A stretch of DNA of 36,230 nucleotides from a virus, in IMG/VR virus record IMGVR_UViG_3300011116_000280, positions 1-36,230 of that record, one strand, 5' to 3'. The first letter of the stretch is position 1. Every line of letters starts with the position of its first letter. The notes below the pieces were generated by a model that made no database searches, was not told the origin of the DNA, and worked only from the letters and a program-made list of their open reading frames with translations. Shown piece by piece: positions 1 to 14,558 of the stretch. The translations under genes were made by a program, and so were the position numbers.

Positions 1-184
1 CTTCCAAGTAAAGGGGTGCAAGGACTTCGGTTACATTATCGATGCGTTCCACCTTTTGAAAAAGCCGGGGAAGCCGCGATGGGTGAAAGCCCTCGACGTA
101 GTTCTCGCCTCTCTGGTCTTCTTCGGGTGGTACGGTGCTCTGGGTTACTTGTTCGTGAAATTCATTCTCTGGTGTCATGGCTAA
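1..184 (+). CDS. Small single-span membrane protein (5'-truncated by the window edge)
   Basis: Partial copy of the 62-residue gene that is complete at 27982-28170; the ATG and part of the second codon lie outside the window. The frame runs from base 2 and stops at TAA 182-184. It differs from the complete copy by four bases, all synonymous, which indicates purifying selection on a real gene. The C-terminal half is strongly hydrophobic and ends in a Trp/Cys/His/Gly tail. Its stop overlaps the start of the tape-measure gene. No family is recognised; it may be a small tail-associated or membrane protein. Confidence 0.7.
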   Translation, partial: FQVKGCKDFGYIIDAFHLLKKPGKPRWVKALDVVLASLVFFGWYGALGYLFVKFILWCHG

Positions 185-1730
185 AAAGAAAGGTGAGGAC
201 GAGGTAGTCGTAAAGATTAAGGCTGACACAACAGCCCTTGACGATGCTTTCGAGGCCGCGGAAAAAGCCGTAGACAACCTAGGCAAAACCGGACAAGAAG
301 CAGTAGGAGCTCTTGACCGAGTGACGGGAGGGTTCGCCTCAAGTTTGGTAAAATCCGTAGCTGGAGCTAGAACCCTTGTTCAGTCAATGGGGCTTCTGAA
401 GGTAGCTCTGATTTCGACCGGTTTAGGAGCTATTGTAGTGGCTGTGGGTTCTTTGGCGGCTTACTTCATGCGTACGGCGGAAGGTGCCGATATGCTAGAG
501 AAAGCGATGAACGGACTTAAAGCCGTTTTCAACGTTGTTCTAGATAGGCTGGCGCAACTGGGAGGAGCGGTAGTTAAGTTCTTCCAAGGAGACTGGGCAG
601 CAGCTGCGGAGCAAGCTTCAGCGGCTATGAAGGGAATCGGCGATGAAATCGAAAGAGAGGTAGCTGTAATAGACAAGCTCACGGAGGCTACTCAAAGACT
701 CGGAGCGGCTCAGCGTTCGATTATCGTGGAGACGGCTAAGCAGCGTGCGGAGATTGAACGGCTGAAGATGGCTTCGGAAGACGTTACGCTGAGCATTGAC
801 GCGAGGATTAAAGCGGCCAAACAAGCGGCGGCGCTAGAGTCCGGATTACTTCGGGAGCGTACTAGGATAGCTCAAGAAGAGTTCAGGATCCGGAAGGAAC
901 AGCTTTCTACGACACACGCGACAAATGAGGAGCTCATGGAGCTTGCTCAGCTTGAGGCAGAGGTGTACAATCTCCGGCAAGAATCTACTTCAGTTCAAAC
1001 GAACCTCCAGAACAAGATTAACGCGCTGCAAGCCGAGCAAGCGGCGGCCGCTCTCGCGGCTCAAATGGCTATACACGACGCGGCACTTGCACAGGCTAAG
1101 ATTCTAAACGAAACGAACGATGCCCTACAAAAGGGATTGAAAGGGGTTGAGCAAATCTCAAACGACACAACCCGGACTATTATTAATAACAGCCAAAGGA
1201 TAAACGATAACGAAAACAACCTATACGCGGACTACACCCAAATTCAGCTCAAGAAACTCCAAGCCGTCGTGAACTTCGCAGAGGCTGGCATTAACCTCGT
1301 GGCAGCTCTCCAAGACGGGCAGGACAAAGACAACGAGAAGCGCGCAAAAAGGAACTTCAAGCTCTCGAAAAGTATCGCGATTGCGAACGCGATTATCAAT
1401 ACCGCAGAAGGCATCACCACGGCCCTCACGGACAAGACCACACCTTCCACTATCATGCGGATCATTCAGACCGCTACGGTAGCTGCGACGGGTGCAGCTC
1501 AAATCGCAACTATCGCCAAGTCTCAATTCGAGAGCCCGGGCCCTCCTCCTCCAGCTCCCGGACAAGGTGGCGGCGGTGGTGGTTCAACCGCGGGCCCTCC
1601 TCAACTCGACCTATCGTTCATGCAAGGTTCTCAAACGTCCGGCTTCCGTTCGTACGTCCTTGCTTCTGACGTGAATAATTCAATGCAGGCAAACCAAAAA
1701 CTCCGGGATCAGGCATCCCTCGTAGGCTAA
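177..1730 (+). CDS. Tape-measure-like tail protein, allele A (517 aa)
   Basis: Likely tail tape measure or tail-length protein. After a charged N-terminus there is a hydrophobic segment at about residues 73-97 (starting LLKVALISTG and ending LAAYF), which in this family follows an LKVAL..TGIGA pattern. It is followed by long Ala/Glu/Gln/Lys-rich helical or coiled-coil stretches (about 150-420). Near residue 460 comes a Pro-run/Gly-run hinge, then a C-terminal tail. At 517 residues it would specify a short tail. The start ATG overlaps the stop of the small membrane gene and the stop touches the protease start (TAATG). The copy at 28163-29704 is a diverged allele, yet the last 20-odd codons are identical. 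Family assignment is from sequence character and context; a minor tail protein is the main alternative. Confidence 0.72.
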   Translation: MAKKKGEDEVVVKIKADTTALDDAFEAAEKAVDNLGKTGQEAVGALDRVTGGFASSLVKSVAGARTLVQSMGLLKVALISTGLGAIVVAVGSLAAYFMRTAEGADMLEKAMNGLKAVFNVVLDRLAQLGGAVVKFFQGDWAAAAEQASAAMKGIGDEIEREVAVIDKLTEATQRLGAAQRSIIVETAKQRAEIERLKMASEDVTLSIDARIKAAKQAAALESGLLRERTRIAQEEFRIRKEQLSTTHATNEELMELAQLEAEVYNLRQESTSVQTNLQNKINALQAEQAAAALAAQMAIHDAALAQAKILNETNDALQKGLKGVEQISNDTTRTIINNSQRINDNENNLYADYTQIQLKKLQAVVNFAEAGINLVAALQDGQDKDNEKRAKRNFKLSKSIAIANAIINTAEGITTALTDKTTPSTIMRIIQTATVAATGAAQIATIAKSQFESPGPPPPAPGQGGGGGGSTAGPPQLDLSFMQGSQTSGFRSYVLASDVNNSMQANQKLRDQASLVG

Positions 1731-2335
1731 TGGAAATCTTTGAACTTGTAATCGACGAGGAAGCCGACACCTACGGCATCCAAGCTATCTCGCTGGTAGA
1801 AGAGCCCGCGATTGAGACGGACTGGGTAGCTCTTTCGGCTCAGTACAACTTCCAGACGGTAGACGCAGACCGCCGCATCCTCCTCGGTCCGGCCCTCATC
1901 CCGGATAAACCTATCTACCGTAAAAGGGGAGACGAGGAGTTCCACATCTTCTTCTCGAAAGAGACGGTAAGGAAAGCGATGGAGCTCTACTTCAAGGCAG
2001 GCAACCAGACACGCGCGACCCTCGAGCACGAAGTCCCTGTAAACGGAACTACGGTAATTGAGTCGTGGATAGTGGAAGGGGAGCAGGACAAGTCGCGTAT
2101 GTATTCCTTGAACGTCCCGGTAGGTACGTGGATGGTCTCGATGAAGGTGGACTCGGAAGCTATCTGGAACGAGTGGGTTAAAGAAGGGAAGGTGAAGGGC
2201 TTCAGTATCGAAGGATTCTTCACCCGGAAGGTGGACCTCTCGGCTATCCCCGAGCTTTCTGCGGAGACCTTCGTAGACGAGCTGGAGGCGATTATTTCGG
2301 AAGCTGTGTCAAAAATCAAAACGCTAAAAGGTTAA
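1730..2335 (+). CDS. Prohead maturation protease, XkdF-like
   Basis: Putative serine protease that processes the prohead, of the family related to PBSX XkdF. Visible signatures are the N-terminal SLVEEPAI motif (residues 21-28), GPALIPDKPIYR (53-64), a segment starting FFSKETV (about 74), ATLEH with His100, and ESWIV with Ser112, followed by GFSIEGFF (157-164). His100 and Ser112 are the candidate catalytic pair by analogy with phage prohead proteases. The 201-residue length suits the family. Its place directly before a scaffold-like gene and the capsid gene supports the role. The start overlaps the stop of the tape-measure gene. An identical copy lies at 29704-30309. Confidence 0.82.
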   Translation: MEIFELVIDEEADTYGIQAISLVEEPAIETDWVALSAQYNFQTVDADRRILLGPALIPDKPIYRKRGDEEFHIFFSKETVRKAMELYFKAGNQTRATLEHEVPVNGTTVIESWIVEGEQDKSRMYSLNVPVGTWMVSMKVDSEAIWNEWVKEGKVKGFSIEGFFTRKVDLSAIPELSAETFVDELEAIISEAVSKIKTLKG

Positions 2336-2353
2336 ACGTAAAACCCCATACTC

Positions 2354-2917
2354 ATGAATATTCAAGAACGAGTGGCGGCCCTGTTTAACAAGTACTCCGC
2401 GATGCTGGCGGAAGAGACTCCGGTCTCTTTGGCTACGGCGGTACTTCAGGGTGGCCAAGAAATCCAGACAGCCGCTGAAGAGTGGGCTATCGGTGTAGAT
2501 GTTTTCGTCGTCAATGACGAAGGCGAGCAAATCCCTCTTCCCGACGGCGAGTACACGCTCGAGGACGGAATCGAGTTTACCGTGGTAGACGGAAAGGTGA
2601 ACACGTGGGAGATGCCGGAAGCTCCGGTCGAAGAAGAAGCCAAGAAGGACGAGGAGAAGATGAGCGAAGATGTTCTGACCCGCGAGGAAGTGGCGCAAAT
2701 GATTCAGGACGCTGTAGAGGCTGCATCTACGACCCTCTCGAAGCAGTTCAAGAGCGAACTCGGAAAGAAAGACGCAGAAATCCAGAAGCTCGCGAAAGCT
2801 GCTACCCCGTCCCTCCCGAAGGCTCCGGCCCGCCGCGAACGTCAAGCCTTGAACCTCACGAACCTCTCCACGGACCAGCGCGTCGCCGCTATCCAGTCAC
2901 ACTTTATGAATCTCTAA
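2354..2917 (+). CDS. Probable capsid scaffolding protein
   Basis: This 187-residue protein sits between the protease and the major capsid gene, the classical place for a scaffold. It is acidic and low in aromatic residues, with a Glu/Lys-rich middle (about 95-115), a predicted amphipathic coiled coil (about 115-160, with heptad-like spacing around VAQMIQDAVEAAS and LGKKDAEIQKL) and a basic C-terminal tail rich in Arg and Asn. Such basic tails often contact the capsid shell. The sequence itself does not name a family, so the call is mainly by position and composition. The start ATG follows an 18-bp gap after the protease stop. An identical copy lies at 30328-30891. Confidence 0.6.
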   Translation: MNIQERVAALFNKYSAMLAEETPVSLATAVLQGGQEIQTAAEEWAIGVDVFVVNDEGEQIPLPDGEYTLEDGIEFTVVDGKVNTWEMPEAPVEEEAKKDEEKMSEDVLTREEVAQMIQDAVEAASTTLSKQFKSELGKKDAEIQKLAKAATPSLPKAPARRERQALNLTNLSTDQRVAAIQSHFMNL

Positions 2918-2927
2918 TTTCTCTGAA

Positions 2928-3872
2928 ATGTCTCAATTCATCAAACTCGCGGACGCTACGATCACGAGCAACTACGTAGGGAAACAAGCCCTGCCGTACG
3001 TCGCGCCCGCTATCCTCGCAGCCGACACGATTGCGAACAACTACGTAACGGTCCTGAACAACGTCCGGGGCCGCGCACAGCTGCGGAAGTTCTCTGGTTC
3101 GGCAATCGCTGCGGCTAGTTGCACCTTCACGACGGGAACGGCTCTGGCTTTGACGGATGTGGCCCTCTCTTTGACGGACCTCCAAATCAACGACCAAATC
3201 TGCAACAAAGACCTGCACATGGCGTGGGAGTCGGAGCAGATGATCGGTGCTGCGGCTACCGCCCCTGCGGATATGAAGGCTGCGGCTGGTCAATACGTCG
3301 CAAAGCGTGCGGCTGAATCTATCGAGTTCAACTTGTGGCAGGGTAACTACAACATCGACGCAGGTGTGGCTACGAGTGCTACTCACACGCTGTTCAACGG
3401 TCTGCTCCGCCAGATGGTTTTAGCTTCTCCGACCTACGAAGCGAACTTGACGGGTGCTCTGACTGCTGCCACCATCCTCAGCAAGCTGGAGGCATTGACT
3501 TCTACGCAGTGCCCGCCCGCAATTAAGGGAGACCCCGAGACGGTCATCTACATGAGCCGCTCCTCTCGCGCTCTGTACTTCTCTGCTCTCGCTGGTACAT
3601 ACAACATCCCTTACCTCGCAGAAGGAACGGCCAGCCAGTACGGAGGATACAAAGTCGTAGCTCCGGCCGGTTTCCCGAATGATACGCTTCTCATCTCGCG
3701 TCCGGATAACTTGTACGTAGGTACGAACCTCCTGACCGACTTGACGGAAGCCCGTGTACTCGACCTCATCGACGTAACCGGTGACGATGTTACCCGCGTT
3801 ATCATGAAGTTCGCGTTCGGTACGCAGGTTGTGGATCACGATTCTTACGGCTTGCTCCGCCGGACCACGTAA
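2928..3872 (+). CDS. Major capsid protein (probable)
   Basis: At 314 residues, and directly after protease and scaffold, this is the best major-capsid candidate. The N-terminus resembles HK97-fold capsid proteins of Bacteroidota phages, which typically start with a short helix and a series of Thr/Ala/Asn-rich segments. Further features are a central E-loop-like region around the LQINDQICNKDLHMAWESEQ stretch and a C-terminal TQVVDHDSYGLLRR end. I do not see a decisive motif. A stable hairpin follows the stop, as expected for a highly expressed gene with its own transcript end. The next gene starts 61 bp downstream. An identical copy lies at 30902-31846. Confidence 0.7.
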   Translation: MSQFIKLADATITSNYVGKQALPYVAPAILAADTIANNYVTVLNNVRGRAQLRKFSGSAIAAASCTFTTGTALALTDVALSLTDLQINDQICNKDLHMAWESEQMIGAAATAPADMKAAAGQYVAKRAAESIEFNLWQGNYNIDAGVATSATHTLFNGLLRQMVLASPTYEANLTGALTAATILSKLEALTSTQCPPAIKGDPETVIYMSRSSRALYFSALAGTYNIPYLAEGTASQYGGYKVVAPAGFPNDTLLISRPDNLYVGTNLLTDLTEARVLDLIDVTGDDVTRVIMKFAFGTQVVDHDSYGLLRRTT

Positions 3873-3886
3873 TAGAAACCCGGATT

Positions 3887-3914
3887 AAGGGGAGGGGCTT
3901 CGGCCCCTTCCTTT
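3887..3914 (+). terminator. Hairpin with UUCG loop after the capsid gene
   Basis: A stem of up to 12 pairs (core AGGGGC/GCCCCT, extended by G-U and A-U pairs) closes a TTCG tetraloop. It lies 15 bp after the capsid stop. The T-tract is short, so it may act as a partial terminator or as an RNA-stabilising 3' end that sets a high capsid-to-tail-tube ratio. Duplicated at 31861-31888. Confidence 0.65.
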
Positions 3915-3933
3915 CGTCCTTAAATTGAAACTC

Positions 3934-4458
3934 ATGGCTTGTTCTATCACAATTTCGGGACGGGGTTTCCCCTGTAAGGACGCTATCGGCGGCGTTCGCA
4001 AATTCTGGACTGCTCCGTTCGACGAGGACGGAAGCAAGTGGGCCGCATCTCCTACCGCTGGTGCTTTGTCGGGGGCTGCGGAAGCAATTACTTTCTACGG
4101 TTTCGAGCTTTCACGCGGGAACGCTTCGTTTACTCAAACTATCAACGCCTCGATGGAGAACGGCTCCGTCTTTTACGAGCAGGTTCTCGAGGTGACTATC
4201 CCGAAGATGGAAGCGGGAGTGAACGCTGAGCTTGCGGACCTCATGAAGCTGCGTCTCTTTATCATCGTGGAAACGATGAACGGAGAGAAGCTCCTGATGG
4301 GTTACAAGAACGGCGCGGAAGGAACCGGCGGAACGATTGTTACCGGTGCTGCTATGGGAGACCTCCACGGCTACACACTTACTTTCACCGCACGCGAGAA
4401 GGTTCCTTCGCCGGTTATTACGGCTACCACGAACCTCACGTACACGCAGGAGACTTAA
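3934..4458 (+). CDS. Tail-tube-like structural protein
   Basis: A 174-residue beta-rich protein beginning MACSITISGRGFPCKDAIGG. This resembles a family of Bacteroidota phage tail proteins with an N-terminal 'C.I...G...C.D..GG' pattern, a central 'QTI..S..NGSVFYEQ.L' strand pair and a C-terminal 'GG.IVTG.A.GDL.GYTLTF.A.E' segment. These features suit a tail tube or major tail protein. I chose ATG 3934 over the in-frame TTG at 3925 because the family-like sequence begins there. It is flanked on both sides by hairpins, consistent with separate control of an abundant virion protein. An identical copy lies at 31908-32432. Confidence 0.5.
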   Translation: MACSITISGRGFPCKDAIGGVRKFWTAPFDEDGSKWAASPTAGALSGAAEAITFYGFELSRGNASFTQTINASMENGSVFYEQVLEVTIPKMEAGVNAELADLMKLRLFIIVETMNGEKLLMGYKNGAEGTGGTIVTGAAMGDLHGYTLTFTAREKVPSPVITATTNLTYTQET

Positions 4459-4483
4459 GGGTTGGTTATCTTGGTTAGGAACG

Positions 4484-4512
4484 GGCCTCGCGTACTGCGG
4501 GGCCTTTTCTTT
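4484..4512 (+). terminator. Rho-independent terminator
   Basis: An 8-bp stem (GGCCTCGC with GCGGGGCC, one U-G pair), a 5-nt loop and a T-rich tail (TTTTCTTT) lie between the tail-tube-like gene and the first glycosyltransferase. This is the best-formed terminator in the structural region. It would reduce read-through into the glycosyltransferases. Duplicated at 32458-32486. Confidence 0.75.
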
Positions 4513-4517
4513 GCAGT

Positions 4518-5171
4518 ATGATTTACGCAGGTATGGCGATGCTCCCGGATAGGTTCCCGGGCTCGCTCCTTTCGGTCCAGAGCATCCTCCCGCAGGTGGA
4601 TCGTCTATTCCTTTGTTTGAACGGCTTCGACTCTATTCCCGAAGAGCTGGTACACGAGAAGATTGAGGTATGGCACTACGGGAAGAACCTCGGAGATCGG
4701 GGCAAGTTCTTCTGGCCCTTCGGAAACTACCGGGCTTTCCTCACGCTGGATGACGACCTCATCTACCCGCCTACCTACGTCGCAGATTTCGTGGCTACAT
4801 CCGAGCTATTTCGAGACGTGATTCTCACCCACCACGGGAAGATTGTTCCCGACCGGGTACGCGATTACTGGACCGACTGCAAGAACGTGGTTCACTGCCT
4901 ACGCAGGAACGAGGAAAACGTACGGGTAGATATCCCGGGCACAGGAGTAGCTTACTACCCCGAGGGGATATACAAGCAATTCGGAAAGAATAACGACTGG
5001 AACCGCGCCGACTTGTACGTTTACGGGCAGATGAAACGCCTCGACGTACGCGCCTACGCACTCCGGCATCCCGCGGACTACTTCGGGTATATCGCTCCTC
5101 CGCAGGGAACGACGATTTGGGAGCAGACACAGAGTGCAGATATGACCGCTATATTCCACTCCTACGCATGA
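4518..5171 (+). CDS. Glycosyltransferase, GT-A fold (family 2-like)
   Basis: A 217-residue protein with GT-A traits: an N-terminal beta-strand/helix start (MIYAGMAMLPDR, then SLLSVQSILPQVDRLFLCLN), a nucleotide-binding region with NLGDRGKF near residue 60, and the metal-binding acidic motif TLDDDLIYPP (about 75-85), the DxD equivalent. The sugar donor and acceptor cannot be read from the sequence. It overlaps the next glycosyltransferase by 4 bp (ATGA), so the two are translationally coupled. Their place between virion genes suggests modification of capsid or tail proteins, although modification of host surface or DNA is possible. An identical copy lies at 32492-33145. Confidence 0.72.
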   Translation: MIYAGMAMLPDRFPGSLLSVQSILPQVDRLFLCLNGFDSIPEELVHEKIEVWHYGKNLGDRGKFFWPFGNYRAFLTLDDDLIYPPTYVADFVATSELFRDVILTHHGKIVPDRVRDYWTDCKNVVHCLRRNEENVRVDIPGTGVAYYPEGIYKQFGKNNDWNRADLYVYGQMKRLDVRAYALRHPADYFGYIAPPQGTTIWEQTQSADMTAIFHSYA

Positions 5172-5854
5172 AGATAGCTCTACACATCCCGGTATGGCAG
5201 CGGCTCGAGCTCACGCGAGCCTGCTACGAAGGTCTCCGACGCATCCAGAAAGAATTCGCCGAAGGTGGCGCGGAGCTCATTCCCTATATCGCGGTTTCTG
5301 AGGACGAACACGAAGGACTCGCGCAAGAATACGGGTGGAATTACAAGTGGTTCGCGAACGAGCGTCTGGGGACGAAGAATAACGAGCTTCTGGACTGGAT
5401 GCGGGGGGCGGACTGGGACTTCATGCTTCAACTCGGTTCCGACGACTTTATTCTCCCGGGAGGTGGGACGCATATCCTCGAGCTCATGGCAGAACACGAG
5501 TTCGCAGGATCCAGAAACATCTATATGTTCCGCGCGGACACGCGAGAAGGAACCCTGTTTCGGGGTTACGCTTCGGGGGCCGGCCGCTTTATGAGCCGGA
5601 GGATAGTGGACAAGGTGCCTGTGATGTGGACGGACCGGCACGTAGGGCTAGACGGGTGTTCTCGGATGCACGTATGGGAGAAGACGAAGGTGGAACCTTT
5701 CTGGAGCCAGACCCCAACCGTCGCAGATGTAAAGAGTTCGGTCAATGTTAGCGCGTTTGCGCGTTATAAGTACAGCCCGGAGAACTACGACCTCGACGAG
5801 ATAGTTCCCGAAGCACACCTAATTCCTCGAGATGCTGTACTTAAACTCGAATAG
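5168..5854 (+). CDS. Second glycosyltransferase-like protein (GT-A/GT2-like)
   Basis: A 228-residue protein whose N-terminus (MKIALHIPVWQRLELTRACY) resembles family-2 glycosyltransferases that begin with a beta-strand and a PV.NR-type loop. A strand plus acidic motif (MLQLGSDDFILPGG, near residue 88) is the likely metal/nucleotide-sugar site. The C-terminal half contains a VDKVPVMW segment and an Asp/Cys-containing DGCSRMHVWEK acceptor-side stretch. I chose ATG 5168, which overlaps the upstream stop (ATGA), over more upstream in-frame starts. It probably works with the upstream transferase on a shared target. An identical copy lies at 33142-33828. Confidence 0.62.
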   Translation: MKIALHIPVWQRLELTRACYEGLRRIQKEFAEGGAELIPYIAVSEDEHEGLAQEYGWNYKWFANERLGTKNNELLDWMRGADWDFMLQLGSDDFILPGGGTHILELMAEHEFAGSRNIYMFRADTREGTLFRGYASGAGRFMSRRIVDKVPVMWTDRHVGLDGCSRMHVWEKTKVEPFWSQTPTVADVKSSVNVSAFARYKYSPENYDLDEIVPEAHLIPRDAVLKLE

Positions 5855-6230
5855 CGGTACCCAAAGTATCTACTTGACGCTTCAGGACGCGGCGAGGGAT
5901 TACACGTACACGCATTACCTGTTTAAGCTCGTCCACAGGATGAGCCAAGAGGACTTCTATTTCGTGGGGTACGTGATGAGCGACAACCCGCGGTACACCA
6001 AAATCGACGTAGCTACGAACGCCACCACGACGAACAACGTCCTCCTGACTGAATCGGGGGATTATGACTACTTCGTCTACGTCCAGAACTCCAGCACGAA
6101 CAAAGACCCTCTAAACGCTGCGGTGGTAGCTATGGTAGAACAGGGTACTTTGCGGGTTCCCGGCGCGGGAATTGTTTCCCTGCCTACTATCTCCCTTGAC
6201 GATAACGTGATTTTCTATGGCAACGAGTAA
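5832..6230 (+). CDS. Small beta-rich structural protein (unknown role)
   Basis: A 132-residue protein with alternating hydrophobic strands, no membrane span and a Thr/Asn/Ser-rich composition. It opens with MLYLNSNSGTQSIYLTL. Similar small proteins with an N-terminal 'L.LN.G..N.IY.T' pattern are encoded beside structural genes in Bacteroidota phages, where the function is undefined. It overlaps the upstream glycosyltransferase by 23 bp and the portal gene by 14 bp, so it belongs to the same transcript. A neck, head-decoration or tail protein is plausible, and it could be the protein modified by the neighbouring transferases. An identical copy lies at 33806-34204. Confidence 0.55.
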   Translation: MLYLNSNSGTQSIYLTLQDAARDYTYTHYLFKLVHRMSQEDFYFVGYVMSDNPRYTKIDVATNATTTNNVLLTESGDYDYFVYVQNSSTNKDPLNAAVVAMVEQGTLRVPGAGIVSLPTISLDDNVIFYGNE

Positions 6231-8229
6231 AAGAATAACAGCCCCTCGAAATCCGGGACGGGTAGAGTCCGTGAACCTCGCGAGCTACGTACCCAAATCC
6301 TACCGAGAGGGCACTCAAGGGGACTGGGTAAACTATGGGGACGACAATCTCTACCCGCAGTATCTGGTAGACCTCTACCACGCAAGCCCGACCCACAACG
6401 CGCTGTGCACGACTATTGCGATGATGATTTTCGGGGAAGGTTTCGAGCCCGCAGACCTCAACGCGAAGCTGCTCGCAGCACAGTGGGACCTCGACTCCGA
6501 ACTGCGGAAGTGCGCTATCGACCTCAAGATTCAGAACGGCTTCGCTCTGGAAGTGAACTGGAGCCTCGACCGGACCACAATCGCGAATATCTCTCACCTT
6601 CCTTTCGAGAACGTACGTTCGGGATTCTGCGACGAGAACGAGGTGGTGGACTGGTACTATTACTCGCGGGACTGGCTGGACAAGCGGGTGGAGCCGACTC
6701 CTATCGCGCGGTTCAACCCCGACACGAAGAACGAGTACCCGACGCAGATTCTGTACATGAAGCCGTTTTCGGTAGGTTCATACTACTACCCGAAGCCGGA
6801 CTATATCGGGGCTATCAATTACATCGAGCTCGAGAAGGAGATTTCGGTCTTCCACATCAACAACATCAAGAACGGCCTCTCTCCTTCGTTTGCTATCCAC
6901 TTCAAGAACGGCATTCCTTCCGACGAAGAGCGCCGCATGATTCGTAGGGATATCGAAAACCAAGCAGCCGGAGCGCAGAACGCGGGGAAGTTCTGGATGA
7001 CCTTCTCGGATGAACCCGACCGGGCCCCCACGATTGAGCCTTTCTCCCTTTCGGACGCAGACAAGCAGTACCAGTTCCTTTCAGAGGAGACCACCGCGAA
7101 GATTATGATCGGCCACCGGGTGACGAACCCGCAGATGTTCGGCGTGATGGTGGCGGGGAAGTTGGGAGGAGGAACCGAAATGGAGGCTTCTGCGGAGCTT
7201 TTCGACCAGCAAGTGGTACAACCGTTCCGAATGATTCTCGAAGATGCGGTAGAGACCCTTCTAAACGCTTCTGGAGCTACACCGACCCTGCTCGAAGAGG
7301 TCGAAGCAAAGAAGCTCAACCTTCGTTCTTATTCTGATTACCCGGATTCGGTAGCGAATAACGCAAAGAAGGGAATCGAGCTGAACGAAAAGAACGGCAA
7401 CCGATGCGCCACGCAGACCGGGAAGGTCCGGGCTCAGCAACTCGCGAATAAAGAGCCTATCTCGGAGGAGACGGTACAGCGGATGTACTCGTACCTCTCA
7501 CGGGCCAGCGAGTACTACAACCCTTCGGACACGGAAGCGTGCGGAACTATCTCCTACCTTCTGTGGGGAGGTCCTGCGGCTTTGATTTGGAGCCGCTCGA
7601 AACTCAAGGAAATCGGCAAGCTCAACCTCTCGGAAAACGTCAACCTCGACGGAGCTCTGGAGTACCTCGAGACCTGCGGGGAGGAGATGGGGGAAGACTG
7701 GATTCTCATTGACGAGCGCGAAGTGGACTACGACCGCGAAGAAGCGCACGACGCGCTGTGGAGCTTCGCTCGTGCTTTAAGGAATAACCCTTCGGCCAAA
7801 TCCTCGCAGGACAATGATATCGTGCGTGTACGGTACGCGTACGCTCCTACGACCCTCTCAGATTCGAAGAGCCGGGACTTTTGCCGTCGAATGATAGACG
7901 CGATGAAGGTCTACCGGAAGGAAGATATCGTGCAAGCCGGAAAACAAGAAGTAAATCCCGGATGGGGACCCGGAGGAGATAAGACGTACGATATCTGGCT
8001 CTACAAAGGAGGTGGTTCTTGCCGTCACTTCTGGATGCGCCAAACGTACCTGAAGAAAGACAACGGGCTGATCTCGGTAAACGAAGCCCAGAGGATTATC
8101 CGGTCTCTCCCTCCCGAAGAAAGGAAGGACAATAAGCTCGAAGAAAACGACCGCAAGGTGGCTCAACGTCCACGTGATATGAAGAACCGCGGGTTCCTGA
8201 AGCCTCGCAAATTCACAACCCCGAGATAA
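6217..8229 (+). CDS. Portal protein with C-terminal extension domains (670 aa)
   Basis: Portal dodecamer subunit through which DNA is packaged. Residues 1 to about 370 show portal-like character: YGDDNLYPQYLVDLY near the start, an N-terminal alpha/beta stem, and the GHRVTNPQMFGV and FDQQVVQPFRMILE helices near 300-345. At 670 residues it is longer than usual. Two extra blocks follow: about 372-467 (starts YSDYPDSVANNAKKGIELN, contains GKVRAQQLANKEPIS) and about 490-615 (ends with NPGWGPGG..TYDIWLYKGGGSC and HFWMRQTYL). I know these blocks from head-morphogenesis proteins of Bacteroidota phages, often beside XkdF-like proteases. The start overlaps the upstream gene; the stop overlaps the connector (TAATG). 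An identical copy lies at 34191-36203. Confidence 0.75.
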   Translation: MATSKRITAPRNPGRVESVNLASYVPKSYREGTQGDWVNYGDDNLYPQYLVDLYHASPTHNALCTTIAMMIFGEGFEPADLNAKLLAAQWDLDSELRKCAIDLKIQNGFALEVNWSLDRTTIANISHLPFENVRSGFCDENEVVDWYYYSRDWLDKRVEPTPIARFNPDTKNEYPTQILYMKPFSVGSYYYPKPDYIGAINYIELEKEISVFHINNIKNGLSPSFAIHFKNGIPSDEERRMIRRDIENQAAGAQNAGKFWMTFSDEPDRAPTIEPFSLSDADKQYQFLSEETTAKIMIGHRVTNPQMFGVMVAGKLGGGTEMEASAELFDQQVVQPFRMILEDAVETLLNASGATPTLLEEVEAKKLNLRSYSDYPDSVANNAKKGIELNEKNGNRCATQTGKVRAQQLANKEPISEETVQRMYSYLSRASEYYNPSDTEACGTISYLLWGGPAALIWSRSKLKEIGKLNLSENVNLDGALEYLETCGEEMGEDWILIDEREVDYDREEAHDALWSFARALRNNPSAKSSQDNDIVRVRYAYAPTTLSDSKSRDFCRRMIDAMKVYRKEDIVQAGKQEVNPGWGPGGDKTYDIWLYKGGGSCRHFWMRQTYLKKDNGLISVNEAQRIIRSLPPEERKDNKLEENDRKVAQRPRDMKNRGFLKPRKFTTPR

Positions 8230-8789
8230 TGGCAGAAGTACTATTCGTGAACCCGAACTACCTCAAGCGGGTGACACAACTCAACGGAGCGGTAGACGAG
8301 AACTACATCTCGCAGGCTGTGATTTTGGCGCAAGACAAGAACATCCAGATCTATCTCGGCTCCGACCTGTACGACGCTCTGCGCACGAAGATTTCCGGCG
8401 GAACCCTCGCAGGGAATTACCTCACGCTGGTAGAGAGCTACGTCCGCAAGGCTACCGCGTGGTGGACTATGGTGGAGTTGATGCCTACCCTCTACGTCAA
8501 AATCGATAACGGAGGTTTGGTGATTCGCTCTTCTGAAAATACGACGGCTATCTCTCAAACGGACTACCACCGGGAGCTCGAGCGGGTTCGCCAGAACGCG
8601 AATTTCTACACGAACCAGATGTACCGGTACTTGTGTCAGAATACAAGTCTCTTTCCCGAGTACACGACGAACCTCTATAACCGGATCTGCGCTCAGCCGT
8701 TCCGCTATTACCAGAGCGGGCTTTCTATCTCGGGGTCGTGGGACCGTCCTACGCTGACTCCGGAGTACGCGTACGCGATTAACCGATGA
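8229..8789 (+). CDS. Head-tail connector / head completion protein (DUF6712-like)
   Basis: A 186-residue, mostly helical protein. The N-terminus has the pattern of head-completion adaptors of Bacteroidota phages (residues 20-55: VDENYISQAVILAQDKNIQIY followed by LGSDLYDALRTKI), with a central Trp/Met-rich helix and a Tyr-rich C-terminal part. These adaptors sit on the portal and bridge to the tail. The gene immediately follows the portal (TAATG overlap), which fits. The ORF ends at TGA 8787-8789. The first 28 bases recur at 36203-36230, where the window ends. Confidence 0.68.
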   Translation: MAEVLFVNPNYLKRVTQLNGAVDENYISQAVILAQDKNIQIYLGSDLYDALRTKISGGTLAGNYLTLVESYVRKATAWWTMVELMPTLYVKIDNGGLVIRSSENTTAISQTDYHRELERVRQNANFYTNQMYRYLCQNTSLFPEYTTNLYNRICAQPFRYYQSGLSISGSWDRPTLTPEYAYAINR

Positions 8790-8834
8790 AGCAGGACCGA
8801 AGAACGAATATAGAACGGCTGAAAAAGTGGATAG

Positions 8835-9017
8835 ATGGCAACGCTGGACGAGGTAGTGGACGCGCTCGCGCGGATAGAGACGAAGCTCGACTTCCACAAG
8901 GAGAGCCTCGACCAGCACGAGGCCAAAATCCGCGACCTTGAGGTAAAGTGGTGGGGTAGTTTGGGCGGCGTTTTCGTTATCGTGGGTACTTGGGTAAAAT
9001 CTCTTTTCAATGCGTGA
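8835..9017 (+). CDS. XhlA-like holin-associated membrane protein
   Basis: A 60-residue protein with an N-terminal amphipathic coiled coil (residues 5-37: LDEVVDALARIETKLDFHKE, then a heptad-like LDQHEAKIRDLEVK) and one C-terminal membrane span (about 42-57, GGVFVIVGTWVKSLF). This is the arrangement of hemolysin XhlA-type lysis proteins that help holins permeabilise the membrane. It is the first gene of the lysis block and overlaps the amidase start by 8 bp. A 45-bp gap separates it from the connector stop. A 5' in-frame start was not evident. Confidence 0.62.
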   Translation: MATLDEVVDALARIETKLDFHKESLDQHEAKIRDLEVKWWGSLGGVFVIVGTWVKSLFNA

Positions 9018-9426
9018 CCTTGATTTCATCGTTCTTCATTGCTCTGCTACTCCGGTATCTATGGATATCGGGGCTAAAGAGATTAAAGCGTGGCACAAAG
9101 GGAAAGGGTGGAAGGATATAGGCTACCACTACGTGATCCGTCTAAACGGGAAGGTGGAGCTCGGTCGTCCGCTGGAGAAGATGGGTTCGCACGTGGTCGG
9201 ATATAACCGCGACTCTGTGGGGGTATGCTACGTCGGAGGCGTGGAGGACAAGAAGCCGAAGGACACGATGAACGCGGCGCAAGAAGCGGCGTGGAGAAAG
9301 CTCGTTTCTACATTACGGGCGCAATACGGGCCTCTCGAGGTTTTCGGTCATAACGATTTCACGGACCAGAAAGCCTGCCCTTCCTTCAAGGTAGGGGAGA
9401 AGTTCGCAGATATGAAGCTCAAATGA
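9010..9426 (+). CDS. N-acetylmuramoyl-L-alanine amidase (T7-lysozyme type endolysin)
   Basis: Zinc amidase that cleaves the bond between N-acetylmuramic acid and L-alanine in peptidoglycan. Amidase_2/PGRP signatures are complete: His10 in LHCSAT, Tyr39 in IGYHYVI, His61 in GSHVVGYN, His114 in GHNDF and the KACP motif with Lys121 and Cys123. By comparison with T7 lysozyme, His10, His114 and Cys123 bind zinc, and Tyr39 and Lys121 are catalytic. No signal peptide is seen, so release depends on the holin genes around it. It overlaps the phosphoesterase gene by 4 bp. Confidence 0.92.
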   Translation: MRDLDFIVLHCSATPVSMDIGAKEIKAWHKGKGWKDIGYHYVIRLNGKVELGRPLEKMGSHVVGYNRDSVGVCYVGGVEDKKPKDTMNAAQEAAWRKLVSTLRAQYGPLEVFGHNDFTDQKACPSFKVGEKFADMKLK

Positions 9427-10280
9427 AGCAACTCTACCCTACCGTCTACTGTGTCGAGCCGAGTTTAGTGGCAAGCGAACGGGCGCGGTACCTTTTCCTT
9501 TCGGATGTTCACTTCGACTCGGTCCACTGTGACCGGGCCCTCCTTACGAAACACCTCGACGAAGCACTCGCAATGAACGCGAGTGTTCTTGTTTTCGGGG
9601 ACTGGTTCGACCTCATGCAGGGGATGTACGACCCTCGCAGAAGCTACTCGGGATTAAGACCAGAGTACAAAAGCATCACGTACCTCGACGACGTGATAGA
9701 GGATTCTGCCGAGTACCTGAAGAAGTACAAGAGCCAGATGAAGTTCTTTGGTCGTGGCAACCATGAGACTAATATTGAAAAGAGGTTGAGTACCTCTCCT
9801 CTCGACCGGCTTACCGCGATACTCGGAGCAGGCCACGTAGGGAGTTACGCCGGGTGGATCTTCTTTCGGTTTACGGAGACCAACGGAAGGAAGCGAGCAG
9901 CGGACACTACCTACAAGCTACATTTTCACCACGGCTACGGAGGGAACGCGCCCCGGTCGAAAGGAGTTCTCGCGGTAGATATCGACCAGAAGGAATGGCC
10001 AGACGCCGATATGATAGTCAGCGGGCACACCCACCAGAAGTGGCACGTTCCGATAACCGTCGAAAGGATAAACAGTAGCGGGAGGATCCGGGACGGGGTA
10101 GTACACCACATCAAGCTCGGAAGCTACAAGCAGCTGGACCGGTTCGCGGGGTGGGAGGTAGAGAAGGGATTCCAGAAGCCGCGCCTCGGAGGATGGTGGG
10201 TGGAGCTGAAGCCTACACGCAAACAAGAACACGACGGCTACAACAGGAAGATAGAGGTCGTTATTAGGGAGGCTACTTAA
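9423..10280 (+). CDS. Calcineurin-like metallophosphoesterase
   Basis: A 285-residue protein with the full metallophosphoesterase motif set: DVH (Asp28/His30), GDWFD (59-63), GNHE (112-115), a His pair at about 169-170 and GHTH (201-204). These bind two metals and hydrolyse phosphodiester or phosphomonoester bonds; the substrate (nucleic acid, nucleotide, cyclic nucleotide or lipid) cannot be told from sequence. It overlaps the amidase stop (ATGA). Lying inside the lysis block is notable, since similar phage enzymes are often DNA repair or recombination phosphoesterases. It may act in host takeover or in degrading host signals rather than in lysis. Confidence 0.85.
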   Translation: MKQLYPTVYCVEPSLVASERARYLFLSDVHFDSVHCDRALLTKHLDEALAMNASVLVFGDWFDLMQGMYDPRRSYSGLRPEYKSITYLDDVIEDSAEYLKKYKSQMKFFGRGNHETNIEKRLSTSPLDRLTAILGAGHVGSYAGWIFFRFTETNGRKRAADTTYKLHFHHGYGGNAPRSKGVLAVDIDQKEWPDADMIVSGHTHQKWHVPITVERINSSGRIRDGVVHHIKLGSYKQLDRFAGWEVEKGFQKPRLGGWWVELKPTRKQEHDGYNRKIEVVIREAT

Positions 10281-10297
10281 TCACTAAACAAGGAAAC

Positions 10298-10456
10298 ATG
10301 TGGGACTTTTTCGCAGAAAACTGGGCAGAGCTTCTTCTGGCTCTCATCACCTTTTTGGGCACGTTTACGGCACTGACGGAAACCAAGAAGGACGACGCAA
10401 TTCTGGATATCGCGAAGAGAATCCTGAACGCGGTATTCTTGGGTCGCAACAAGTGA
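10298..10456 (+). CDS. Small single-span membrane protein (holin candidate)
   Basis: A 52-residue protein in the lysis block. It starts MWDFFAENWAELLLALITFL, has one membrane span (about residues 9-27) and a charged C-terminal tail ending in GRNK. Small proteins beginning WDF..ENWAELLL with this layout recur in Bacteroidota phages near endolysins. A holin or pinholin function is plausible but not shown. It starts 17 bp after the phosphoesterase stop and its TGA overlaps the GTG of the next gene. It is too short for many gene callers. Confidence 0.6.
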   Translation: MWDFFAENWAELLLALITFLGTFTALTETKKDDAILDIAKRILNAVFLGRNK

Positions 10457-10668
10457 ATCCTCTCCTAACGATTTTAAAGGGGTTAGATTTAACCGAAATC
10501 TTCAAGACCAAGGGAGACCTTCGGCGGTGGTCCGCGAAGCGAACCTTGGGCGGTCTAATTGCGTCTACGGCCTGTTACCAGATATTAGAGACGGGTGCTA
10601 CGTGGCCGCTGGTCGCTTTATGCGGTATTGCGGTCCTCCCTTTGTGCTTCTCCTTCTTTGGGGAGTAG
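10453..10668 (+). CDS. Small two-span membrane protein (holin candidate)
   Basis: A 71-residue protein read from GTG 10453, which overlaps the previous stop (GTGA). After a charged N-terminus (LTEIFKTKGDLRRWSAKR) come two hydrophobic segments: about 33-48 (GGLIASTACYQI) and 50-68 (WPLVALCGIAVLPLCFSFF). This matches small holin-like proteins. Its neighbourhood (amidase, XhlA-like protein, another tiny membrane protein) supports a lysis role. In-frame upstream sequence is the out-of-frame shadow of the preceding gene, so the GTG start is preferred. Confidence 0.62.
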   Translation: MNPLLTILKGLDLTEIFKTKGDLRRWSAKRTLGGLIASTACYQILETGATWPLVALCGIAVLPLCFSFFGE

Positions 10669-10708
10669 ATTCGCGCCGAACTATTCCGGTTCATCATTGT
10701 TGTTTGAT

Positions 10709-10744
10709 GGGGGCTGCTTCAAACGTGAGGCGGCCCTCTTTTTT
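10709..10744 (+). terminator. Rho-independent terminator of the lysis block
   Basis: A 7-9 bp stem (core GGGCTGC with GCGGCCC, extended outwards by G-U and G-C) with a 12-nt loop is followed by an uninterrupted T-run. It lies 41 bp after the last lysis gene and 30 bp before the first early promoter, so it separates late from early transcription. Confidence 0.8.
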
Positions 10745-10774
10745 GCCCTATTCCGAAAAATAATTCCGGATAAA

Positions 10775-10807
10775 TTTGGAGGAAAGAAGAAAGTTTCTTT
10801 ATCTTTG
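10775..10807 (+). promoter_or_regulatory. Bacteroidota-type promoter, early operon 1
   Basis: TTTG at 10775-10778, a 21-nt spacer and TATCTTTG at 10800-10807 match the primary-sigma promoter of Bacteroidota (TTTG, about 19-21 nt, TAnnTTTG). CAAACAAC follows at 10814-10821 and ATG at 10828, giving a short leader. The element is nearly identical to the one at 14506, including the 21-nt spacer and a shared AATTTGGAGGAAA start. It follows the lysis terminator directly. Confidence 0.85.
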
Positions 10808-10827
10808 AGCCATCAAACAACCGGAAA

Positions 10828-11028
10828 ATGAAAGACTTCGATTTCACACAGTACAGCGAGCAGATTGCGGACCTCATGGGATTCATTCAGGCTCGCGGCT
10901 TGACCTTCTCAACTCCTGAAGAGCTCAACCAGATCATGGTTGACTGGCTGAACCACGGAACCCGCGTTATCGCGCAGCTCCAACAGCCCGCAGTTATCGA
11001 CTCCATGTACCGCAAGATGTTCGCATAA
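10828..11028 (+). CDS. Small early protein, unknown function
   Basis: A 66-residue protein, the first gene downstream of promoter 10775. It is mostly helical with no membrane span, no Cys and a mixed charge pattern (a segment starting DFDFTQYSEQI, later TPEELNQIMVDWL). No family is recognised. The short leader and top position suggest very early, strong expression, as for host-takeover proteins, but this is inference from place only. A hairpin (11030-11043) lies right after its stop. Confidence 0.6.
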   Translation: MKDFDFTQYSEQIADLMGFIQARGLTFSTPEELNQIMVDWLNHGTRVIAQLQQPAVIDSMYRKMFA

Positions 11029-11029
11029 C

Positions 11030-11043
11030 GGGGCTTTGGCCCC
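11030..11043 (+). terminator. Possible attenuator hairpin
   Basis: GGGGC/GCCCC stem with a 4-nt TTTG loop two bases after the stop of the first early gene, followed by TCTATTTA. The T-tract is weak, so partial termination or mRNA stabilisation is more likely than a full stop. Confidence 0.4.
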
Positions 11044-11059
11044 TCTATTTATCTCAGCA

Positions 11060-11230
11060 ATGCAACGACCAGAATTCAAGCAGGACGTGAACGAGCTGTA
11101 CACGTTCTATCTCAAGCTCCTCGCAGAAGGGGAGCCCTACGGTATCGAATGGCACCTCCATAACGTGGACGTAGCTATCGACCACCTCAACAACTTCATC
11201 GAAAACCACCCTAAAACAAAGCAGTTATGA
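11060..11230 (+). CDS. Small early protein, unknown function
   Basis: A 56-residue protein, mainly helical, with the pattern FKQDVNELYTFYLKLLAEGE and a His/Asn-rich end. It carries no recognised domain. I chose ATG 11060; a more upstream in-frame GTG would start inside the hairpin region. It overlaps the next gene by 4 bp (ATGA), so it is part of the same early transcript. Confidence 0.55.
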   Translation: MQRPEFKQDVNELYTFYLKLLAEGEPYGIEWHLHNVDVAIDHLNNFIENHPKTKQL

Positions 11231-11589
11231 AGATTGCAGAGATTCAGCAGAGCGGAACGTGGGAGTCACAGTACGGACTCATGTACCGCATGGAAGTAAC
11301 TCTCGAGGACAACCGCGCCGGAGAGGTAAACGCCAAGAAGCCCGACGCGTGGAAGGTCGGGGACGAGGTAGAAATCGTGGACGCGAAGCCGAACCCGCGT
11401 GGCCTCACGAAATGGAAGCTCCAGCGTCTAGAGCAGAAGAGCTACGGAGCATCTCCGGACACACAGCGACGCATCGATGCAAGCTGGGCCGTAGGTCAAG
11501 CTATCGCTCTCGGATCTAAAAAGCCGGACGATATCGAATCCACAGCTCTCCTCCTTCTCGAGCTACGCGACAAAATCGCAAGCCGTTAA
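11227..11589 (+). CDS. OB-fold-like early protein (possible single-strand DNA binding)
   Basis: A 120-residue protein. The N-terminal part (MKIAEIQQSGTWESQYGLMY, then VTLEDNRAGEVNAKK, then VGDEVEI) has the strand pattern of small OB-fold proteins of Bacteroidota phages that may bind single-stranded DNA. The C-terminal part (IDASWAVGQAIALGSKKPDD and a Leu-rich helix) resembles a second helical domain seen in such proteins. No catalytic residues are evident. Its place in the replication operon fits a DNA-binding helper, but the assignment is inference by pattern. Confidence 0.5.
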   Translation: MKIAEIQQSGTWESQYGLMYRMEVTLEDNRAGEVNAKKPDAWKVGDEVEIVDAKPNPRGLTKWKLQRLEQKSYGASPDTQRRIDASWAVGQAIALGSKKPDDIESTALLLLELRDKIASR

Positions 11590-11762
11590 TGGCTCGACCC
11601 CTTGCAAAGGACAAAACAACTCAGACGGATTTGCGGGTGTACTGGAGGACCAGCCCGTTCGCAAACCTGTCTGGGTTGATGCGTCTCGGAAACCTAACCC
11701 GCGAAGAAGCGGAACAATTCATCGAACAATGCGAAACCACACCGAATTACAGAGAGTCTTGA
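11589..11762 (+). CDS. Small early protein, unknown function
   Basis: A 57-residue protein read from the TAATG overlap with the preceding gene. It starts MARPLAKDKTTQTDLRVYW and contains NLTREEAEQFIEQ, suggesting a short helical C-terminus. No domain is recognised. The start of the following HTH gene lies inside it in another frame (34 bp overlap). It was too short to be called automatically, but the tight overlap with both neighbours supports it. Confidence 0.5.
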   Translation: MARPLAKDKTTQTDLRVYWRTSPFANLSGLMRLGNLTREEAEQFIEQCETTPNYRES

Positions 11763-11950
11763 TATTTCATTTCGGGACCTTGACCAGAGCCGCGGCCTAC
11801 TTTGGAGTTACTGAAGCGTGTATCCATCACTGGGGCCGAAAGAACCCGGTCCCTTTCCTGAAACATATTCGGGAATTTCATCGATATTCGGGACTCTCTT
11901 ACGGCGAGATAGCAGAACTCGTAACCCGTACCGAGCAACAAATCGAATGA
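11729..11950 (+). CDS. Small helix-turn-helix DNA-binding protein
   Basis: A 73-residue protein with a clear HTH: LTRAAAYFGVTEACIHHWGR (residues about 18-37), where A-A-x-x-F-G-V-T is helix 2, the turn and helix 3. The rest (FLKHIREFHRYSG, then YGEIAELV) would be helical packing around it. This is typical of Cro/CI-size or excisionase-like regulators. It lies directly before the replication initiator (ATGA overlap at 11947), so it may be a regulator of the early or replication operon. No repressor/operator pair could be delimited. Confidence 0.6.
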   Translation: MRNHTELQRVLIFHFGTLTRAAAYFGVTEACIHHWGRKNPVPFLKHIREFHRYSGLSYGEIAELVTRTEQQIE

Positions 11951-12699
11951 ACCACGGTCTCTGGATACCTGAGCGCATTTTGTCGCTCCCTCTCTCTTGG
12001 CACGAACGTATCTTCTTGTCGGTGGTGCTTTCGTACACCGATACAGGTAAGGAATGCTTCGCTTCGGCTGAATTTCTGGCGGAGCGTTGCTACTGTTCTG
12101 AGGTGCAAATACGGAAGACTATCAAGAAGCTTTTGGAGCTTGGATACATCAAGCGAGAGGGCTACGCGTCCAGTCGGAAGTTGTTCATTTCGGAACTTGT
12201 TCCAAATGGAACTTGTTCCATATCGAACACCAGAAGTTCCAAACAGAACTTTCAGAAGTTCCAAATGGAACAACTAGATGTTCCAAATGGAACACATACT
12301 ATAAAGACTACTAAAAAGAGTACTAAAAAGCTTACTAGTAAAGACACGCGTGCGCGTGGTATGGTGGAGGAGGTTGTTCTTCCTTTCGATTCTTTGGAAT
12401 TTTGCGAGGCGTGGGACCGCTGGAAAGAGTACCGGGCGAAAGAGTTCGGGTTCAAGTACAAGTCCCACGTCTCTCAACAGACGGCTTTACATTCACTACA
12501 GAAACTCTCAAACAACAATGAGCGAACAGCAATCGGGATTATCGGCCAGAGCATCGCAGCCGGGTGGCGCGGTCTCTTTCCCCTCAAAGGCAACGGAGGC
12601 GTTAACCTTACGCGAGAGGGATTCGCAAGGCATTTTGAAGGTCGGGGAGCCGGAGGTAATCCACCGGCATGGACTGAGCGTTTCACGGGCGAAATCTGA
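11947..12699 (+). CDS. Replication initiator / replisome-organiser-like protein with internal iterons
   Basis: A 250-residue protein. Residues about 20-90 form a winged-helix (FLSVVLSYTDTGKECFASAE, then a VQIRKTIKKLLELGYIKRE recognition region). A low-complexity linker (about 90-140) is encoded by the iteron array. The C-terminal part (AWDRWKEYRAKEFGFKYK, then AIGIIGQSIAAGWRGLFPLK) resembles the C-terminal domain of phage replication initiators that recruit host helicase. I prefer ATG 11947, which overlaps the HTH stop (ATGA), to the upstream in-frame start at 11818, which would sit inside the HTH gene. The 3' end overlaps the next gene by 182 bp. Confidence 0.68.
   Translation: MNHGLWIPERILSLPLSWHERIFLSVVLSYTDTGKECFASAEFLAERCYCSEVQIRKTIKKLLELGYIKREGYASSRKLFISELVPNGTCSISNTRSSKQNFQKFQMEQLDVPNGTHTIKTTKKSTKKLTSKDTRARGMVEEVVLPFDSLEFCEAWDRWKEYRAKEFGFKYKSHVSQQTALHSLQKLSNNNERTAIGIIGQSIAAGWRGLFPLKGNGGVNLTREGFARHFEGRGAGGNPPAWTERFTGEI
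12199..12293. repeat. Array of five 14-bp palindromic iterons (candidate replication origin)
   Basis: Three exact copies of the dyad GTTCCAAATGGAAC (12199, 12258, 12280) and two variants: GTTCCATATCGAAC (12215) and GTTCCAAACAGAAC (12236). Starts are spaced 16, 21, 22 and 22 bp, so four of the five lie on about the same face of the helix. The repeats fall in different reading frames of the host gene, so selection acts on the DNA, not the protein. A run of five initiator-binding sites inside the initiator gene resembles the lambda O arrangement. Confidence 0.75.
12294..12345. other. AT-rich segment beside the iterons (possible DNA-unwinding element)
   Basis: Directly right of the iterons lies an AT-rich tract with the repeat ACTAAAAAG at 12310 and 12322 (12-bp step) and the related ACTAGTAAAG, in a genome that is otherwise rather GC-rich. 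A GC-rich near-palindrome (ACGCGTGCGCGT) follows. The layout iterons, then AT-rich repeats, is that of an origin with its unwinding element. Confidence 0.5.
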
Positions 12700-13165
12700 A
12701 GACCTCACCTACCTCCGGGCCCTCCTCGGGCGCGAGCTGGTCCAGCTCATGCGGGCGGTGAAGGTCAACAACACCTTCTCGAACGAGGAGGATATCTATA
12801 CAGCCGTCGACGATATCATCGAGGAGTTCAAAACTCTCAAGGTCGAGGAGGTGGTTCACGTCTTCGCCCAAATACGGCGCGGGAAAATCGAGATCTACGG
12901 GCGGCTGGATACCCCGACTATCTGTAAAGCTCTCCGAGACTACGACGTGAACGTGGCGTGCGAGTTCCGGGAGAAGCATTACAAGGAAGCTATCCAAGAG
13001 GAAGCCCTCTCATCACGGTCTTTTCAGGAGATTATCGACTCACTCCCGGAGGTTCGGCCTACATTCGCCGAAATCCTTTCACGCCGGCCGAAATTGAGCC
13101 CGCAGGAACGGGAAGAAATCAAAGCCAGAGACCGAGAAAGATGGCAACAAAGCGGGCAGCCCTAA
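12518..13165 (+). CDS. Replication-associated protein (DUF6633-like), unknown role
   Basis: A 215-residue protein. After a Ser/Gln-rich N-terminus comes a helical domain from about residue 60 (LTYLRALLGRELVQLMRAVK, then IYTAVDDIIEEFKTLKVEEV, then FAQIRRGKIEIYGRLDTPTI). This pattern I know from proteins placed after replication genes in Bacteroidota phages; the function is undefined. The C-terminal part is Arg/Glu-rich. ATG 12518 gives a 182-bp overlap with the initiator; a later start would trim the overlap but I see no better ATG, so the N-terminus is uncertain. It overlaps the NinG gene by 25 bp. Confidence 0.6.
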   Translation: MSEQQSGLSARASQPGGAVSFPSKATEALTLRERDSQGILKVGEPEVIHRHGLSVSRAKSEDLTYLRALLGRELVQLMRAVKVNNTFSNEEDIYTAVDDIIEEFKTLKVEEVVHVFAQIRRGKIEIYGRLDTPTICKALRDYDVNVACEFREKHYKEAIQEEALSSRSFQEIIDSLPEVRPTFAEILSRRPKLSPQEREEIKARDRERWQQSGQP

Positions 13166-14429: not shown

Positions 14430-14505
14430 AGTAGAACGCGAAGAAACCGCGAATTTGCTGTGTGATACGCTCTTACTGATGGACCGAATAAAATTCTCGG
14501 AATAA
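14335..14505 (+). CDS. Small protein with MPIPKP motif, overlapping reading frame
   Basis: A 56-residue protein starting MPIPKPTSSEKRNEFIENLM and continuing with KDPVMVKQFPDEVERE. This matches a short conserved module (MP.PKP..GE....F...CM.DP.M..EFP....R..VC) that I know from many phages, where it usually sits at the start of structural proteins or as a stand-alone small protein. Here Cys of the usual 'CM' is Leu, and the gene is out of frame with the Zn-ribbon gene, sharing 95 bp. Its stop (14503-14505) abuts promoter 14506. The motif match in an overlapping frame is unlikely by chance, so I regard it as real although its role is unknown. Confidence 0.62.
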   Translation: MPIPKPTSSEKRNEFIENLMKDPVMVKQFPDEVEREETANLLCDTLLLMDRIKFSE

Positions 14506-14538
14506 TTTGGAGGAAAAGAAAACTTTTCTCTATCTTTG
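14506..14538 (+). promoter_or_regulatory. Bacteroidota-type promoter, early operon 2
   Basis: TTTG at 14506-14509, a 21-nt spacer and TATCTTTG at 14531-14538. The spacer is close to that of promoter 10775, and CAAACAAC follows six bases after the -7 element in both. The expected start site lies near 14545 and the ATG at 14559. The duplicated design implies a shared regulon under host primary sigma. Confidence 0.85.
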
Positions 14539-14558
14539 GAAGGTCAAACAACAAGACA

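What the first reader, a model, noticed from the sequence alone, without database searches (positions are those of the whole stretch)
1..1730. Two diverged tape-measure alleles flanked by (near-)identical DNA
The window repeats 8.2 kb at its ends. Upstream of the tape-measure gene there are four synonymous differences in about 176 bp, and downstream (from 1668) the copies are identical for 6.6 kb, yet the tape-measure gene itself differs in roughly a third of residues and by 12 bp. The switch back to identity is sharp, inside the last 21-22 codons. This looks like allele swapping of one tail gene within an otherwise clonal phage population, or a chimeric concatemer of two variants. Tape-measure proteins contact host membrane proteins during DNA entry, so an allele swap could reflect host-factor adaptation. 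Assembly of two strains into one contig is the conservative explanation.
Basis: partly seen in the sequence, partly recalled or inferred. Interest (0 to 1): 0.75.

Follow-up and report, generated by a model that had tools for sequence, protein, structure and literature searches.

The report
Two tape-measure alleles, over-circularised phage contig
The contig runs about 1.3 times around one small 28-kb phage genome and passes through two different but genuine versions of the tail tape-measure gene; such gene-version swapping between near-identical phages is already known, and the duplicated ends are most likely an assembly effect.

Summary
Copy 1 (1-8256) and copy 2 (27987-36230) differ by 4 synonymous SNPs upstream, by about 31% of nucleotides (29% of residues, 12 bp) in the tape-measure gene (TMP), and by nothing in the last 6,589 bp. 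The map closes at about 28 kb and no tandem genome is needed. In four of six longer relatives (26-28 kb) the contig ends overlap, three of them imperfectly, as expected when an assembler walks round a circular map through strain variants. Both alleles are genuine and old. Allele A's relatives are in independent contigs (L012-L014, 92% aa), and so are allele B's (L003-L006, 92-95% aa). Within-class synonymous divergence matches that of flanking genes, while A versus B is near saturation. The gene is also mosaic: N-part (aa 1 to ~345) and C-part (~350-470) classes occur in all four combinations, and trees reject one shared history (AU p<1e-70). TMP is one of several such islands. This is ordinary phage allele exchange ("metaviromic islands"), already reported for TMP, displayed in one contig by assembly. 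The 6.6 kb of perfect identity may be forced by collapsing the shared path, so "otherwise clonal" is not shown. Host-factor adaptation is plausible but untested.

The parts
1..176 (+). Left flank of allele A (most of the 62-aa gene); 4 synonymous SNPs against 27987-28162
177..1730 (+). Tape-measure gene, allele A (517 aa)
   Evidence: PHROG tape-measure families E 8.9e-10; relatives L012-L014 at 92% aa
177..1226 (+). N-part of allele A (class A; shared with L012-L014)
   Evidence: boundary approximate
1227..1667 (+). C-part of allele A (class A; shared with L007, L008, L015), ending at the last A/B difference
1668..8256 (+). Copy 1 of the 6,589-bp block identical in both copies (TMP 3' end, XkdF-type protease, scaffold-like, capsid-like, portal genes)
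8257..27986 (+). Single-copy remainder of the about 28-kb genome (replication, NinG, methyltransferase, terminase, tail genes)
27982..28170 (+). 62-aa gene upstream of allele B, with one hydrophobic segment; in copy 1 its start lies before the window
28163..29704 (+). Tape-measure gene, allele B (513 aa)
   Evidence: relatives L003-L006 at 92-95% aa
29642..36230 (+). Copy 2 of the identical 6,589-bp block; contig ends 27 bp after the portal stop codon

Best explanation
The window is one metagenome contig of a circularly mapping, about 28-kb tailed phage (probably infecting Bacteroidota), walked about 1.3 times round. Two strains in the sample carry different old TMP alleles. The assembler entered through allele A, went round the shared genome, came back through allele B, and re-used the shared downstream path until it stopped at 36230. 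The alleles themselves arose by ordinary homologous recombination: the divergent TMP is exchanged by crossovers in conserved sequence at the TMP start codon and in or after its conserved 3' end, and also inside the gene near codon 347. Shown: the sequence pattern, both allele classes in independent contigs, all four N/C combinations, and imperfect end overlaps in relatives. Inferred: the assembly path, and that both strains were in one sample.
For: Repeat geometry and exact boundaries. Closed gene content at about 28 kb, with no integrase or host gene found among the ORFs scanned. Relatives of 26-28 kb show end overlaps: G003 exact 127 bp, G034 141 bp at 97.9%, G047 139 bp at 98.6%, G004 196 bp at 99.5%. 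CheckV authors report IMG/VR contigs repeating one genome and call them probable assembly artefacts (PMC8116208). Allele A kin L012-L014 and allele B kin L003-L006. Four N/C combinations: winA A/A, winB and L003-L006 B/B, L007/L008/L015 B/A, L012-L014 A/B; TMP_N clade winA+L012-14 100/100, TMP_C clade winA+L007/8/15 98/100 with L029 in the set and 93/90 without it, swapped clades rejected with p-AU 4e-97 and 2e-73. N-part dS within a class, window to kin, is 0.40-0.71 and flank dS is 0.26-0.68; A/B pS is 0.67-0.74, near saturation. The same left boundary (28176, 13 nt into TMP) and right boundaries near 29203 or 29474 recur between other contigs, e.g. L005/L014, with a 5.9-kb downstream flank at 97.7% and an identical MCP.
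Against: No reads were available. Contig ends in MCP-anchored relatives are not visibly concentrated in TMP (rough count from the match starts). The first A/B difference (base 52) does not fit a simple bubble edge at a common k-mer size, so the exact assembler path is unknown. Records closest to the window are withheld from the searches (searches found not even the window itself), so neither allele was seen in a second near-identical contig.
Confidence: 0.85

Rival explanations
1. A real molecule: a recombinant concatemer, tandem prophage or over-long packaged genome carrying both alleles about 28 kb apart.
For: The contig as written has this order.
Against: No integrase or host DNA was found. 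A terminal repeat of 8.2 kb is 29% of the unit, far beyond the few per cent usual for headful packaging (general knowledge), and true terminal redundancy would be identical rather than 31% divergent at TMP. Relatives' end overlaps are 127-196 bp.
Confidence: 0.05
2. Chimera of two less-related strains: allele A belongs to a strain whose own downstream region differs, and the join at the conserved TMP 3' end is artificial.
For: The left flank already differs by 2.3% while the right shows zero differences in 6.6 kb, as expected if one shared path was used twice. The join region is conserved in most relatives.
Against: The left flank of A (97.7% to B) is far closer to the window than to any other relative (87-88%), so A's genome is a close strain. 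This changes only how clonal the pair is, not that two alleles exist.
Confidence: 0.35
3. The alleles are maintained by selection at the DNA-injection step (different inner-membrane entry factors, or escape from defences that bind the tape-measure protein).
For: In E. coli phages TMP type tracks ManYZ dependence and sensitivity to the SNIPE nuclease, and escape mutations lie in TMP (PMC13190303). Both classes persist across lineages about as diverged as their flanks.
Against: Several genes show the same pattern: g722, portal C-terminus, capsid centre, tail fibre. dN/dS between alleles is about 0.1. The hydrophobic segment is well conserved. No host data.
Confidence: 0.3

Closest known systems
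Flexible-gene / metagenomic islands in cryoconite phages (Bellas et al. 2020, PMC7468147)
   Same: Near-identical core genomes with exchanged homologous genes, including tape-measure variants at 78-81% identity; several variants of an island co-present in one metagenome; recombination inferred
   Different: Different phages; here both alleles sit in one contig, and the gene is seen to exchange in two halves
Metaviromic islands in marine phages (Mizuno et al. 2014, PMC3909814)
   Same: Single-gene variable islands between otherwise close phages; tape-measure protein is listed among island genes (3 of 390)
   Different: Defined there by read recruitment, not tested here
IMG/VR contigs containing the genome more than once (CheckV, PMC8116208)
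   Same: Contig longer than one genome unit; authors consider assembly artefact likely
   Different: Here 1.29 units, with a diverged segment inside the repeat
Nonlabens phages P12024S/P12024L
   Same: Nearest isolates by portal (36% aa); also weak TMP similarity (32% over 25%)
   Different: 35.7-kb genomes, distant; used only as a hint to a Bacteroidota host

Membership tests
Phage tail tape-measure protein | Profile similarity to known tape-measure families | tested here: met
   A: phrog_24676 E 8.9e-10, phrog_3336 1.1e-6; B: 1.2e-6 and 7.3e-6. Weak similarity to annotated Cellulophaga TMPs
Phage tail tape-measure protein | Long helical protein with a hydrophobic segment, in the tail/morphogenesis gene cluster | tested here: inconclusive
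   Hydrophobic segment about aa 70-97 and late-gene position seen directly; structure not predicted
Phage tail tape-measure protein | Sets tail length | not testable with these tools
   Needs electron microscopy or mutants
Flexible-gene (metaviromic) island | Highly diverged homologous gene between near-identical flanks | tested here: met
   Left flank 97.7%, right 100% over 6.6 kb, TMP about 69% nt; right-flank identity may be assembly-forced. L005/L014: 97.7% over 5.9 kb downstream with a different TMP N-part
Flexible-gene (metaviromic) island | Variants recombine in different combinations | tested here: met
   Four N/C combinations; swapped clades rejected
Flexible-gene (metaviromic) island | Several variants co-present in one sample by read recruitment | not testable with these tools
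   No reads; co-presence inferred from one contig
Assembly-made concatenated contig | Contig longer than one genome unit, with the unit size supported by relatives | tested here: met
   36,230 bp against a unit of about 27,974; relatives with end overlaps are 26.4-27.9 kb
Assembly-made concatenated contig | Read depth shows one unit | not testable with these tools
   No reads
Tandem (double) prophage | Integrase, attachment sites or host flank | tested here: not met
   No integrase hit among scanned ORFs; small ORFs not all scanned, attachment sites not searched for

The most novel reading that the evidence does not exclude
The tape-measure gene of this freely recombining phage group is a two-module (N-part and C-part) ancient polymorphism shared across phage lineages and kept by selection at the DNA-injection step, each module answering a different host entry factor or defence.
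Probability: 0.15. Interest if true: 0.55.

Novelty: new member of a known kind. Interest (0 to 1): 0.22.

Why it matters
It shows how a contig that overshoots its circular map can present population alleles as a tandem repeat, and how perfect identity in such repeats can be an assembly effect rather than clonality. The family also gives a clean natural data set of tape-measure modules exchanged across lineages, useful for testing whether injection-stage host factors or defences such as SNIPE drive tape-measure diversity.

Tried and rejected
Enrichment of contig ends inside TMP as a sign of allele-broken assemblies: a rough count per kb from the match starts gave no excess. Reading the assembler k-mer size from the first A/B difference (base 52): it fits no common k. 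Exact 26-mers from allele A, allele B and the shared block in viral contigs: no match, not even the window, so near records are withheld. A host through genome contigs with a capsid alignment: no relative. DNA-level search of isolate phages: no match. One search used an arbitrary test pattern and carries no information. Papers on trans-species polymorphism in phages: nothing relevant among those listed. No structure prediction was run, since fold would not separate the hypotheses.

Full report
What is there. The window is a virus record of 36,230 bp. Its first 8,256 bp and last 8,244 bp are two copies of the same genome stretch. From the left: 176 bp with four synonymous SNPs; the tape-measure gene, where the copies differ at about 31% of nucleotides and 29% of residues with a 9-bp and a 3-bp indel; then 6,589 bp without one difference to the window end.

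Genome unit. The distance between copies is 27,974-27,986 bp. Within one unit lie replication initiation, NinG, sigma-like, methyltransferase, terminase, tail, tape-measure, XkdF-type protease, capsid-position and portal genes, with no integrase among the ORFs scanned. The nearest isolates are distant Bacteroidota phages (Nonlabens P12024S/L: portal 36% aa), so a Bacteroidota host is a guess from similarity. Of six longer relatives (26-28 kb) four have overlapping ends: one exact 127-bp overlap (a common assembler k), and three imperfect ones of 139-196 bp at 97.9-99.5%. Circular maps with strain-mixed ends are thus usual in this group. The CheckV authors report IMG/VR contigs that repeat one genome and judge them probable assembly artefacts (PMC8116208).

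The alleles are real. Allele A relatives occur in L012, L013, L014 (92% aa) and allele B relatives in L003-L006 (92-95% aa), all separate contigs. A sliding comparison shows two class boundaries inside the gene. N-part to about codon 345: class A in winA and L012-L014, class B in winB and L003-L011. C-part, codons ~350-470: class A in winA, L007, L008, L015; class B in winB, L003-L006, L009-L014 (L010 and L011 are truncated at one end). All four combinations exist, the four-gamete sign of recombination. L015's N-part call rests on 41 codons. Trees agree: winA groups with L012-14 in the N-part (100/100) and with L007/8/15 in the C-part (98/100, or 93/90 when the long L029 is left out); forcing the swapped groupings is rejected with p-AU 4e-97 and 2e-73.

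Age. Between the window and other lineages, within-class N-part dS is 0.40 (A, to L012) and 0.49-0.71 (B, to L003-L006), and flank genes give 0.26-0.68. A against B is near saturation (pS 0.735 N-part, 0.67 C-part) with dN/dS about 0.1. Both alleles therefore look as old as, or older than, the split of these lineages and are under purifying selection. This is consistent with a shared old polymorphism; repeated import from unsampled donors would look similar.

Exchange in other contigs. L005 and L014 are 97.7% identical over 5.9 kb downstream (identical capsid gene) but carry different N-parts, with the left boundary at 28176, 13 nt into TMP, the same place as in the window. TMP is not alone: g722 (26131-27700), the capsid middle (3331-3731), portal C-terminus (~7300-7700), tail fibre (21331-23700) and the methyltransferase/Mom region (16931-18531) vary in the same patchy way.

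How it works. Most likely, two co-existing strains carry different TMP alleles acquired by homologous recombination in conserved flanks, and the assembler passed once through each allele and twice through the shared downstream path. If so, the 6.6 kb identity is automatic and says nothing about clonality; the 2.3% difference on the left is the only direct measure of distance between the strains. The steps shown are the sequence pattern, the classes and the recombination. The assembly path and co-presence in one sample are inferred; no reads were available, and records nearest the window are withheld from the searches.

Known or new. Exchange of tape-measure variants between near-identical phages, with several variants of an island co-present per metagenome, is published (PMC7468147), and TMP is listed among metaviromic-island genes (PMC3909814). 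A driver at DNA injection is plausible because TMP type tracks ManYZ dependence and SNIPE sensitivity in E. coli phages (PMC13190303), but nothing here tests it, and the hydrophobic segment is conserved between the alleles. The finding is a well-documented new case of a known kind.

Noticed in passing
18002-18616 and 16426-17676: Mom-family DNA-modification gene (PF25680, E 2.5e-29) close to a ParB_N + N6/N4 methyltransferase gene, in a stretch that is patchy or missing in relatives.
   Followed up: no
4518-5171 and 5117-5854: Two overlapping ORFs that look glycosyltransferase-like by eye, between capsid and portal genes; no PHROG hit for either, no Pfam hit for the first.
   Followed up: no
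26131-27700 (gene 25817-27985): A second two-class gene: about 95% aa in L004-L008 and L010, 73-75% in L003, L009, L012 and L013, shuffled with respect to TMP class.
   Followed up: partly
3331-3731, 7300-7700, 21331-23700: Further multi-allelic islands: capsid centre, portal C-terminus, tail-fibre region.
   Followed up: no
L006 and L010: 100% identical over 13,122 bp in two metagenome records; L010 ends at the TMP 3' convergence point (window 29630) and L006's ends overlap in the same place.
   Followed up: partly
L028 (record G021:5630-7123): TMP match with one in-frame TAG; real nonsense, recoding or assembly error not determined.
   Followed up: no
10753-10807 and 14484-14538: A 55-57-bp direct repeat at 82% identity within the early region.
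   Followed up: no
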